A stretch of 64,000 nucleotides of DNA, from the NCBI RefSeq assembly GCF_013694095.1, contig NZ_JACEFB010000008.1, forward strand, positions 124,001-188,000, read 5' to 3'. Below, piece after piece: positions 1 through 2,179 of this stretch. The stretch's first letter is position 1. The number at the start of each line of letters is the position of its first letter. The translations under genes were made by a program, and so were the position numbers. Source of the DNA: Thermogemmata fonticola (GTDB lineage: Bacteria; Planctomycetota; Planctomycetia; Gemmatales; Gemmataceae). The notes beneath the pieces are model-generated. The model worked only from the letters and a program-made list of their open reading frames with translations. It had not been told where the DNA came from and ran no database searches.

Positions 1-912
1 GTCAGCGGAATGAAAGGAGACGGTTTTGGAGGGGGCGAGGCCGGTCACACTTTTTCCGATCAGCCAGCAAGGGAAGTTTGAGGATTGGACATGGCCGTCG
101 GCGTAAAGAATGTTGCAACCGTAGGGATGGCCGATGTAGGGAGAGGACCCACTTCTCGGATTCGAGACCCCGGCAGGACATGGGCGGGGAGCATACCAAT
201 CTTCAAGGGGCTGGCCGTAAAGGGGAGAGAGCCGGCGGACAGCGTCCCTCTGGTCAGGGCGTCCGGCCATGGTCCAGTATGATACGTAAATCGAGGAAAT
301 GTCCGCGGAGTGAATAACGACCGGCTGAAGCGGGAAGGAAGTATTTTCCGGACTGGCGGTCAGAGAACAAAAAACCACAGGCAGGCAGGAGGAGACGGCC
401 TCCGCAGAGGGCCAGGAGGCGTAAGGAAGCGAGGGTTCCGCCAGCGGGCTAAAGGCCGCCAGAGAGGGAACGCTCGACCCATGGGCATTCTGCTGGACGT
501 AGGAGAGGCGAAGCGTGTTCTGGCAGGCGAGCCAGTCATGGCGGGCGCGCAACTTGCCCACAGCAGACAGGAACAGACCGCTAGCCAGGATCAGAATGCA
601 GCCGGCCACGAGGATATCGGGCCGGAAGCGCCCGCCTGTGATGCGCCAATCGGGCAAGGTCCGCGGTGCTCGTGGCAAAGTGCGGGAGGGGTGCGGCCAG
701 AGGTCCTGAAGGCGTGCCAAGGTCCGCTCTGCCAGTCCCTGGCGCGGAAGGACAAGGCGCTGGCGCTCTCGTTCCAGAGGCTGGAGCTTGCGCCGCAGAC
801 GTTCCAGGCGTGCAGCCAAGGCGCCATCCGCCTGCAAACGAGCTTCCAACTGCCGAGCCTCCGCCTCGGAGAGTTGGTGCAACAGGTAATCCAGCAGAAC
901 TTCGTCACGCAT
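1..912 (-). CDS. Anti-sigma-like membrane protein with H-X9-DG motif (partial, runs off left edge)
   Basis: The frame is open for 304 codons from the ATG at 910-912 to base 1 with no stop, so the C-terminus lies outside the window. Residues 1-80 are charged and helical and begin like planctomycete anti-sigma/zinc-finger-type proteins (LLDYLLHQLSEAEARQLEA), but lack the usual H-x3-C-x2-C. A membrane helix spans about 98-117. It is followed by a stretch (C130, QNTLR) that resembles the post-helix segment of DUF1559 pseudopilins. The outer part holds an exact H-X9-DG motif (H262 to D272-G273, in NILYADGHVQ). The gene starts 105 bases after the ECF sigma factor on the same strand, so it is probably that factor's membrane regulator. 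The functional link is inferred from position. Confidence 0.8.
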   Translation of the reverse strand, partial: MRDEVLLDYLLHQLSEAEARQLEARLQADGALAARLERLRRKLQPLERERQRLVLPRQGLAERTLARLQDLWPHPSRTLPRAPRTLPDWRITGGRFRPDILVAGCILILASGLFLSAVGKLRARHDWLACQNTLRLSYVQQNAHGSSVPSLAAFSPLAEPSLPYASWPSAEAVSSCLPVVFCSLTASPENTSFPLQPVVIHSADISSIYVSYWTMAGRPDQRDAVRRLSPLYGQPLEDWYAPRPCPAGVSNPRSGSSPYIGHPYGCNILYADGHVQSSNFPCWLIGKSVTGLAPSKTVSFHSAD

Positions 913-1017
913 AAATGTATCGCAGTTTCCACGGGCGATGCTTGCAGTTACCCTACAATGGCGTGGCGGCGAGGCCTTGTTCTTTGTGCCCTCCGAGCCG
1001 CACAAGGGGAAAGCCTT

Positions 1018-1698
1018 TCACAAGGGGGAAGAGGCGGCAGCAGCGGAGCGGGGGCGCGGCCAGGGCACCCTCAGCGGGTCCGCCGGCTGCTGGGCCGAGT
1101 GCCGGGGCGCATCAAAAGCCGAGCAGGCCTCGAGGAGTTTCTTCAAGGCCGCATGCAAGCGGGATTTCACCGTGCCGATGGGAATGCCGAGCACCTCGGC
1201 AGCTTCGTGGTACTTCAAGCCTTGGAAATACACCAGCAACACGACACTCCGCAGGAGGGGGGGCAGGTTTGCCACCGCTTGGCGGACTAAAGTCCGCTGC
1301 TCCGCGCGCTCCAAAAGGTCCAACGGTCCGTCCGTCTCGTCGGCGGCGACCAGGTCCCAGCCGCAGACCGCCGCTTCGTCGTCTCCCATTCGTTCCTCCC
1401 ACAGCCCGGCGCGATCTCGCCGCCGCTGCAACCGCCGCAAGGCATCGATCGCCTGGTGGGTGGCGATGGCGTAAAGCCAGGGGCGCGCCGCCCGGCCCGG
1501 CTCATACTGGTCGATCTTCAGAAACACTTGCAAGAAGGTGTTCTGAAACACATCCTCCGCCAGCTCATCGTCGTTGAGATAGCGGCAGAGATACCCGAAC
1601 AATTCCCGCTCATAACGGCGCACCAGCAAGTCCAGCGCGGCCGGCTCGCCGCGTTGCAGGCGCAACAACAATTCTTCATCCGACGGTGCCGATTGCAC
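1018..1698 (-). CDS. ECF-family RNA polymerase sigma factor
   Basis: About 226 residues. Region 2 is seen in the first half (RRYERELFGYL, then DDELAEDVFQNTFLQVF, and RPWLYAIATHQAIDALRR). Region 4 lies near the end (LPPLLRSVVLLVYFQGLKYHEAAEVLGI, then GTVKSRLHAALKKL, a typical helix-turn-helix). ECF factors direct RNA polymerase to a small regulon and are usually held by a membrane anti-sigma; the next gene downstream fits that role. Start choice is uncertain: no ATG fits the frame, and GTG codons at 1698, 1710, 1716 and 1725 are possible. I chose 1698 because the homologous part (SDEELLLRLQRGE) begins right after it. The Pro/Ser/Ala-rich tail after region 4 has no visible domain. Confidence 0.9.
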   Translation of the reverse strand: MQSAPSDEELLLRLQRGEPAALDLLVRRYERELFGYLCRYLNDDELAEDVFQNTFLQVFLKIDQYEPGRAARPWLYAIATHQAIDALRRLQRRRDRAGLWEERMGDDEAAVCGWDLVAADETDGPLDLLERAEQRTLVRQAVANLPPLLRSVVLLVYFQGLKYHEAAEVLGIPIGTVKSRLHAALKKLLEACSAFDAPRHSAQQPADPLRVPWPRPRSAAAASSPL

Positions 1699-2179
1699 AA
1701 TCGCCCCCACTCCCACTCTCCACACATGGCTACGCTCAGGGAGCCGCCAGGGTTCGCTCAGTCCAATCCGTTTTCCTCAACTCTGGCGGACTGTTCTTCC
1801 TTCCAGCCCGATCTTTGTTAGGCCATCTTTCCCGTCTCTTCCATGTCAGGAATCAAACCCATAGCTTCTCTCGCTCAAGTCCGCCTTTATCTGCGCTCAA
1901 GCTCGTCTTCTATCCAGCCGCGGTTCCCTGAGCCAATCGGAAAACTCTTGTCGATCGTTCCTTCAGAACTCACCCTCAGACTCATTCTAAAGAGGAAAAG
2001 TATCCTGGGGAGCGCAAGACTTTGCCTCTCTCCCCCCTCCAACATGTGCAGACATCCCGTCCAGGGGTCCAACCCAGCGGTCCCGCCGGGTCAGGAGTCA
2101 GGAAAGCGGGAGACGCAGAGGACCATCAAGAGATCACGTGATTGACGATCAGAGGCCCACTTTTCCGCGGGCCAATGGC
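1699..2179. other. Intergenic region upstream of the sigma factor gene
   Basis: No convincing gene. It is the upstream region of the ECF sigma gene and the downstream region of the FG-GAP gene, both on the minus strand. Relatively T/C-rich on the plus strand. No clear promoter match or terminator hairpin was seen. Confidence 0.5.

What the first reader, a model, noticed from the sequence alone, without database searches (positions are those of the whole stretch)
1..1725. ECF sigma factor coupled to an anti-sigma-like protein fused to a pseudopilin-type H-X9-DG domain
The partner protein joins a helical cytoplasmic part, one membrane helix and an outer part with exact H-X9-DG spacing and a QNTLR segment like DUF1559 pseudopilins. 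This suggests an envelope or pseudopilus-related signal sensed by a sigma factor, a combination I do not know as described. The frame is complete for 304 codons but runs off the edge.
Basis: partly seen in the sequence, partly recalled or inferred. Interest (0 to 1): 0.55.

Follow-up and report, generated by a model that had tools for sequence, protein, structure and literature searches.

The report
Pilin-shaped anti-sigma factor in Planctomycetota
A bacterial gene switch is held at the membrane by a protein that is, from its membrane helix outward, built like a type IV pilin, so it may let these bacteria sense their pilus-like machinery or envelope.

Summary
Window 1725-1018 (-) is an ECF sigma factor; 912-1 (-) is its anti-sigma partner. 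That protein is complete at 304 aa: its stop codon lies just outside the window. It matches anti-sigma models and, just over cut-off, the H-X9-DG model. A profile of the family matches 82 of 95 genomes of the family and 200 of 297 sampled from the class. The ECF gene lies just upstream in 66 of 68 clear fusions. The resemblance exceeds what was claimed: the membrane helix itself is a pilin alpha1, with an acidic residue at pilin position 5 (74 of 85) and proline at position 22 (71 of 85). Profile comparison with shuffled controls and fold comparison agree. The prepilin cleavage site is generally missing, so it is a pilin whose leader was replaced by an anti-sigma domain. The family motif is mostly H-X10-DG; the window copy is a divergent member with a poorly modelled head. 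The operon carries a conserved promoter GAACC-N16-CGTA (window 1755-1731), which recurs upstream of acylphosphatase genes in 8 of 10 relatives. What it senses is unproven. New variant of a known kind.

The parts
1731..1755 (-). Predicted ECF-type autoregulatory promoter, GAACC-N16-CGTA (GAACCCTGGCGGCTCCCTGAGCGTA)
   Evidence: Found; the dyad GAAC-N17-CGTA came first in an open dyad search of 51 orthologous ECF upstreams: 29 of 51 against 0.2 expected from shuffles
1018..1725 (-). ECF sigma factor; the frame opens at GTG 1725, but the promoter position argues for a later start (GTG 1716, 1710 or 1698)
   Evidence: Pfam and NCBIfam; start inferred from the promoter position
1..912 (-). Anti-sigma factor with pilin module, 304 aa; stop codon lies in the three bases left of the window
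703..912 (-). N-terminal cytoplasmic anti-sigma domain, residues 1 to about 70, no Cys/His zinc motif
   Evidence: NF052375 match; helices 3-71 modelled; the same domain of relative L099 matches RslA, MucA, RsiW and RskA structures
556..618 (-). Transmembrane helix equivalent to pilin alpha1-N; D99 at pilin position 5, S116 at position 22 (proline in most relatives)
508..525 (-). C130-Q-N-T-L-R, the C-x-N-N-L motif of DUF1559 pseudopilins, 31 residues after D99
   Evidence: invariant Cys in alignments A1, A2, A4, A5
94..129 (-). H-X9-DG motif, H262 to G273
   Evidence: TIGR04294 20.3 bits, cut-off 19; profile-profile match of this motif region between 25 anti-sigma relatives and 26 own-genome DUF1559 proteins, E 1e-6

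Best explanation
[quoted passage not shown] The anti-sigma factor is a type IV pseudopilin whose cleavable leader has been replaced by a cytoplasmic anti-sigma domain. Shown by computation: architecture, homology, conservation, gene pair, promoter motif. Inferred: the N-terminal domain binds and silences the sigma factor; the pilin part sits in the inner membrane with its head in the periplasm; it is not processed and has no free Phe1 to donate, but its acidic residue 5 could accept the N-terminus of a real pseudopilin, so it may associate with the pool of DUF1559-type pseudopilins or their filament. A change in that contact (or proteolysis that follows it) frees the sigma factor, which transcribes its own operon and, in related Gemmataceae, an acylphosphatase gene followed by an ABC-2 permease gene. 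I put the architecture at about 0.95, autoregulation at about 0.85, acylphosphatase as a target of this very ECF factor at about 0.6, and pseudopilin contact as the signal at about 0.35.
For: 66 of 68 ORFs with both parts (67 after removing an identical copy) have an ECF gene just upstream on the same strand (open frames 450 bases apart to 620 overlapping); of 19 pilin-domain hits without an anti-sigma-domain hit 5 do (by eye those 5 have a divergent N-terminal part; redundancy). Acidic residue 17 before the proline column in 74 of 85, none at the 20 following positions; proline 71 of 85; cysteine 83 of 85 at its profile column; acidic residue and cysteine exactly 31 apart in 66 of 85. Own-genome pseudopilins: E to C 31 in 26 of 26, E to P 17 in 25 of 26. 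hhalign E 9e-19 over helix and following part; helix alone 21.4 against a shuffled maximum of 14.1; head motif alone E 1e-6. Relative L099 folds at mean pLDDT 90.1; the 12 PDB entries listed by VIA-align are anti-sigma domains (5) or type IV pilins/pseudopilins (7). Promoter dyad 29 of 51 against 0.2. Acylphosphatase site in 8 of 10 genomes. The own genome has prepilin peptidase, assembly-ATPase and many DUF1559 hits.
Against: No motif upstream of the 26 own-genome DUF1559 genes examined; no genome-wide excess of the motif (29 sites against 44 in the reversed control; 149 against 194 in ten relatives). 30 of 71 ECF upstreams lack the looser motif, among them 16 of the 19 from loci L152-L178. 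No gene other than the ECF gene recurs widely beside the anti-sigma gene. The window copy has Ser at position 22 and a head modelled at low confidence; its congener G001 lacks H-X9-DG. 11 of 85 lack the acidic residue. PDB Z scores are modest (2.5 to 6.2), one pilin row (8tum) aligns in another register than FimA, and Foldseek alone gave no match with E under 1. No acylphosphatase gene was seen at the 29 own-genome sites.
Confidence: 0.6

Rival explanations
1. The pilin module is only a co-opted sensor head and membrane anchor. It senses an envelope ligand or stress directly, the sigma factor is freed by regulated proteolysis, and no contact with pseudopilins takes place.
For: Anti-sigma factors commonly carry unrelated outer domains (general knowledge). 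The head keeps an invariant second Cys and a nearly invariant motif region in the aligned members. No DUF1559 gene among the 26 examined is a visible target in the own genome and no pilus gene is a conserved neighbour.
Against: A sensor head alone would not require the pilin helix register: acidic residue, proline and cysteine are kept together in most members.
Confidence: 0.4
2. The acidic residue is kept for topology only: it caps the helix next to a basic stretch and orients the protein, with no pilin-like role.
For: A basic residue occurs in the five positions before it in 73 of 85; Asp (61) outnumbers Glu (13), whereas the 26 own-genome pseudopilins all have Glu.
Against: Exact distance to Pro and Cys as in pilins. 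Of 11 members without the acidic residue 8 also lack the proline, of 74 with it 6 do, which fits loss of one function, though several of the 8 are close relatives.
Confidence: 0.2
3. In the window's own genus the module is decaying: only the anti-sigma domain and anchor still matter.
For: Window head pLDDT 39-69 by blocks of ten, apart from one block of 80 at the motif; G001 matches only over residues 1-160, at 59% identity, and lacks the motif.
Against: The window copy keeps both Cys and an above-cut-off H-X9-DG match.
Confidence: 0.35
4. The acylphosphatase promoter sites belong to a different ECF factor with the same core motif.
For: GAAC/CGTA is a common ECF promoter core (recalled); spacer letters differ between the two site sets.
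Against: Apart from the ECF gene, acylphosphatase is the most recurrent gene family downstream of the strict motif (8 genomes; the next has 3).
Confidence: 0.35

Closest known systems
Class I anti-sigma factors (ASDI; RseA, RsiW, RskA, MucA)
   Same: N-terminal helical anti-sigma domain, encoded directly after an ECF gene, one membrane helix; the L099 model matches RslA, MucA, RsiW and RskA structures; non-zinc and membrane-bound forms are common (PMC7406223, passages)
   Different: Membrane helix and outer domain are a type IV pilin module; no such case was seen in the listings and passages examined
DUF1559 / SBP_bac_10 pseudopilins (PF07596, TIGR04294) of Planctomycetota
   Same: Helix register (acidic 5, Pro22, Cys 31 after the acidic residue), two invariant Cys, H-X9/10-DG motif near the C-terminus. 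The family is expanded to 41 or more genes per Planctomycetales genome (PMC8567305, passages)
   Different: Gly at the cleavage position in only 6 of 85; Asp more often than Glu at position 5; an anti-sigma domain in place of the leader; ECF neighbour
PilS-PilR sensing of pilin levels in Pseudomonas
   Same: Possible functional parallel: a regulator that responds to pilin levels in the inner membrane (PMC6058289, passages; the primary paper was not held)
   Different: PilS is a sensor kinase; here the regulator would itself be pilin-like and control an ECF factor. Only an analogy

Membership tests
ECF sigma / class I anti-sigma pair | Sigma-70 regions 2 and 4 in the partner | tested here: met
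ECF sigma / class I anti-sigma pair | N-terminal anti-sigma domain homologous to known ones | tested here: met
   NF052375 matches 25 of 25 aligned members at E up to 0.1, but the two whose scores I saw are under its whole-protein cut-off (35.6 and 44.5 against 100); fold rows RslA, MucA, RsiW, RskA, Z 4.9 to 6.2, for relative L099
ECF sigma / class I anti-sigma pair | Conserved gene adjacency with the ECF factor | tested here: met
   66 of 68
ECF sigma / class I anti-sigma pair | Binds and inhibits the sigma factor | not testable with these tools
   needs a binding assay
Type IV pilin / DUF1559 pseudopilin | Class III signal peptide: short leader ending in Gly, then Phe or Met | tested here: not met
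   window: Gly but then Arg, and a 90-residue N-terminal part; in the family Gly at that position in 6 of 85, and Gly followed by Met or Leu in 2 of 85 (L151, L088)
Type IV pilin / DUF1559 pseudopilin | Acidic residue at position 5 of the hydrophobic helix | tested here: met
   74 of 85, Asp 61 and Glu 13; D99 in the window
Type IV pilin / DUF1559 pseudopilin | Pro22 (class IVa pilins and pseudopilins) | tested here: inconclusive
   71 of 85, but Ser in the window protein; one own-genome pseudopilin (L059) also has no Pro there
Type IV pilin / DUF1559 pseudopilin | H-X9-DG motif | tested here: met
   window 20.3 bits, cut-off 19; family mostly H-X10, and TIGR04294 matches only 6 of 25 members
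Type IV pilin / DUF1559 pseudopilin | Long alpha1 plus beta-sheet head | tested here: inconclusive
   present in the L099 model, with modest Z; the window head is modelled at low confidence
Type IV pilin / DUF1559 pseudopilin | Assembles into a filament | not testable with these tools
   needs microscopy or crosslinking

The most novel reading that the evidence does not exclude
A transcriptional reader of the pseudopilus: an anti-sigma factor that is itself a non-cleavable pilin, docks through its acidic residue 5 onto pseudopilins in the membrane or at the base of the pseudopilus, and releases its sigma factor when pilin supply or filament state changes. This would be signalling by subunit mimicry, widespread in the phylum.
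Probability: 0.3. Interest if true: 0.85.

Novelty: new variant of a known kind. Interest (0 to 1): 0.62.

Why it matters
Planctomycetota carry dozens of DUF1559 pseudopilins of unknown function. An ECF system whose sensor is itself pilin-like, usually found once per genome and in two thirds of the sampled class, gives a concrete handle on what that machinery does, a defined promoter for a reporter, and candidate target genes. It would also be an unusual way to build a membrane sensor: replace a pilin's leader by a regulatory domain.

Tried and rejected
Chance resemblance: rejected by shuffled-column controls and the separate head-motif match. Sigma factor controls the DUF1559 genes: no support in the own genome (0 of 26 upstreams, 400 bases each except L050 with 139; the 26 come from 30 loci read, out of 59 match rows). 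In ten relatives two sites precede a DUF1559 gene (L311, L221), which I estimate by hand at about 0.25 expected, so weak. Conserved neighbours other than the ECF gene: the next clusters reach 11 of 68 loci or fewer, at scattered positions for the largest (the ECF gene itself was clustered in 51 of 68 because the ORF picker was crude). Alignment A1 kept 24 of the 29 relative loci (dropped: L017 cut by its contig, L025 and L032 true pilins, L028 unrelated, L030 no ORF), plus the window protein. A4 used 61 and A5 44 of the 68 fusion ORFs, plus the window protein. The global alignment of the heads is weak (hhalign -glob, probability 39). Foldseek alone found no PDB match with E under 1. A regular expression for the ECF gene found 19 of 24 before the profile-based count. 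The upstream scan also gave sigma70-like boxes (15 of 51, 0.4 expected), perhaps a second promoter in some lineages; not pursued. The phylum count (120 of 294) mixes fusions with plain pilins and is not used as a count of fusions. In one search, 24 of 34 sites were labelled as lying at the ECF gene; I assign 7 more by their distance (660-730 bases) from the anti-sigma start, leaving 3. The 51 upstreams and the 85 proteins include close relatives, so counts are not independent events.

Literature: ten searches in an open-access subset. I saw listings and passages, no whole paper. The ECF reclassification paper did not appear in the listings, and Wiegand 2020 and Jogler 2012 are not held, so prior mention there is not excluded.

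Full report
Observation. The window is contig C8:124001-188000 of a 4.8 Mb genome, probably of Gemmatales (inferred from the named relatives). On the minus strand an ECF sigma factor (1725-1018) is followed after 105 bases by a 304-residue protein (912-1). The protein matches anti-sigma models at its N-terminus and TIGR04294 (H-X9-DG) near its C-terminus, the latter by only 1.3 bits over cut-off.

Relatives. A protein search found matches in 29 of 41 genomes, some of them plain pseudopilins. 24 of the 29 loci read, plus the window protein, were aligned. Four columns are invariant in all 25: a Tyr and a Leu in the anti-sigma domain, an Asp at the start of the membrane helix, and a Cys 31 residues later (34 in members with a three-residue insertion). 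NF052375 matches 25 of 25 members, DUF1559 (PF07596) 10 of 25 and TIGR04294 6 of 25, all at E up to 0.1. A scan of the collection of species genomes confirmed 82 places and kept 80, among them Singulisphaera acidiphila, Tautonia sociabilis and Aquisphaera insulae, many MAGs, and distant forms in Phycisphaerae. In these, 68 ORFs carry both parts (67 after removing an identical copy), and 66 of the 68 have an ECF gene just upstream; of the two others one starts at the edge of its locus (L138) and one (L158) has no ECF hit at the threshold. With a 62-member profile at E 1e-25, 82 of 95 family genomes and 200 of 297 class genomes match, nearly always once, though only the best 7 to 23 candidates per genome were scored; no f4 genome is among the matches. 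In the own genome plain pseudopilins reach only 7e-16 with this profile, but some outside the class reached 1.7e-25 with the earlier profile.

The membrane helix is a pilin helix. In 26 own-genome DUF1559 pseudopilins the distance from Glu5 to Pro22 is 17 (25 of 26) and to the conserved Cys 31 (26 of 26). In 85 fusions (window copy included) the residue 17 before the proline column is acidic in 74 (61 Asp, 13 Glu), the proline is present in 71, and the spacing from proline column to cysteine column is 14 in 73. No acidic residue occurs in the 20 positions that follow. hhalign aligns Asp with Glu5 at E 9e-19. With columns shuffled inside segments, the real score of 90.8 compares with a maximum of 20.9 in 100 shuffles; helix alone 21.4 against 14.1, post-helix part 53.0 against 17.3. 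The head motif matches by itself at E 1e-6, with one residue inserted: 63 of 85 members read H-X10 before DG or a variant such as GG, 19 gave no match to the expression; H-X10-DG is also found in 20 of 50 true pilins examined, so the window's H-X9-DG is the exception in its family. A second Cys is invariant in both families, which suggests a shared disulphide (inference). All 86 anti-sigma pilin domains (the window copy counted twice) fall on one side of one split of a tree, with 50 true pilins from the loci fetched on the other (support 0.85), consistent with a single origin.

Structure. A typical relative (L099) folds with mean pLDDT 90.1: anti-sigma helices, helices 88-117 and 121-146 in line with one kinked pilin alpha1, then a beta head. 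Of 371 chains aligned in the PDB second look, 16 reach Z 2; the 12 entries listed are five anti-sigma domains over residues 1-69 and seven type IV pilins or pseudopilins over residues 85-304, Z 6.2 down to 2.5. The full-length pilin FimA starts at model residue 90, which would put Asp94 at pilin position 5; the 8tum chain aligns in another register. This is support, not proof. The window protein itself gives a good anti-sigma domain and long helix (98-143) but a poor head (mean pLDDT 66.7), and the congener G001 has no H-X9-DG: this genus is a divergent branch.

Regulation. Upstream of the ECF gene the dyad GAAC-N17-CGTA, the top hit of an open dyad search, occurs in 29 of 51 sequences from loci L099-L151 against 0.2 in shuffles; a looser form occurs in 41 of 71, but in only 3 of the 19 from the more distant loci L152-L178. 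In 685 kb of loci L099-L151 there are 34 sites, 7 in the reversed control, and by my count 31 of the 34 lie at the ECF gene. The window has it at 1755-1731, which places the ECF start codon later than GTG 1725. This is the signature of autoregulation (inference from general ECF biology). In the own genome there is no excess of sites (29 against 44 control) and none upstream of 26 DUF1559 genes. In ten relatives (149 sites, 194 in the control; 142 read) nine genomes have the site at the ECF operon by position. Among the sites read, the family that recurs most is an acylphosphatase gene: 8 of 10 genomes, site end 8 to 83 bases before the start. Acylphosphatase was confirmed by Pfam for one (L227) and the following ABC-2 permease for two (L227, L230); the rest by sequence similarity or by eye. 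An ArsP-type permease family recurs in 3 genomes (one checked by Pfam) and a DUF4349 family in 2 (one checked). Random placement would give 8 of 10 with a probability near 1e-30 for a named gene, but which ECF factor uses the acylphosphatase site is inferred.

Mechanism. In type IV pilins Glu5 pairs with the N-terminal amine of the neighbouring subunit and is needed for efficient assembly, and Pro22 lies where the helix melts in the filament (PMC5059446, passages); Glu5 mutants can still join wild-type filaments (PMC4471445, passages). A pilin without a free N-terminus could accept, but not donate, that contact. I therefore give a sensor that associates with pseudopilins about 0.35, with a plain ligand or stress sensor as the main rival. 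The genome has the machinery: 59 DUF1559 match rows, 8 assembly-ATPase rows and prepilin peptidase at 3 places.

Novelty. Anti-sigma factors with diverse outer domains are known; a whole pilin in that role was not seen in the searches made (open-access subset only, key classification papers not held). I call it a new variant of a known kind.

Noticed in passing
L227:1500-3024, L230, L254, L259, L284, L299, L314, L337: GAACC-N16-CGTA promoter before an acylphosphatase gene, followed by an ABC-2 permease gene, in 8 of 10 Gemmataceae genomes.
   Followed up: partly
L075, L087, L088, L024: Fusions with a seemingly duplicated N-terminal helical domain (about 400-530 aa open frames), three in distant Planctomycetota and one in the window's family; seen by eye.
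   Followed up: no
L074, L076, L077, L164, L165: Distant members with another N-terminal sequence type; L074, L076 and L077 have Glu rather than Asp at pilin position 5. L164 and L165 lie next to an ECF gene.
   Followed up: partly
L156, L161, L162, L166, L174: Distant members (most named Phycisphaerales) that have lost both the acidic residue and the proline while keeping the ECF neighbour.
   Followed up: partly
L111, L113, L123, L125, L142 and others upstream of the ECF gene: TTGAC-type sigma70-like boxes in 15 of 51 ECF upstreams (0.4 expected), possibly a second promoter.
   Followed up: no
L275, L226, L297; L306, L342: The same promoter motif before ArsP-type permease genes in 3 of 10 genomes and before DUF4349-type genes in 2 of 10.
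   Followed up: partly
L002:8001-9593 (left of the window): The next gene downstream of the pair looks like an FHA plus HD-GYP protein by its sequence (recalled motifs, not searched).
   Followed up: no
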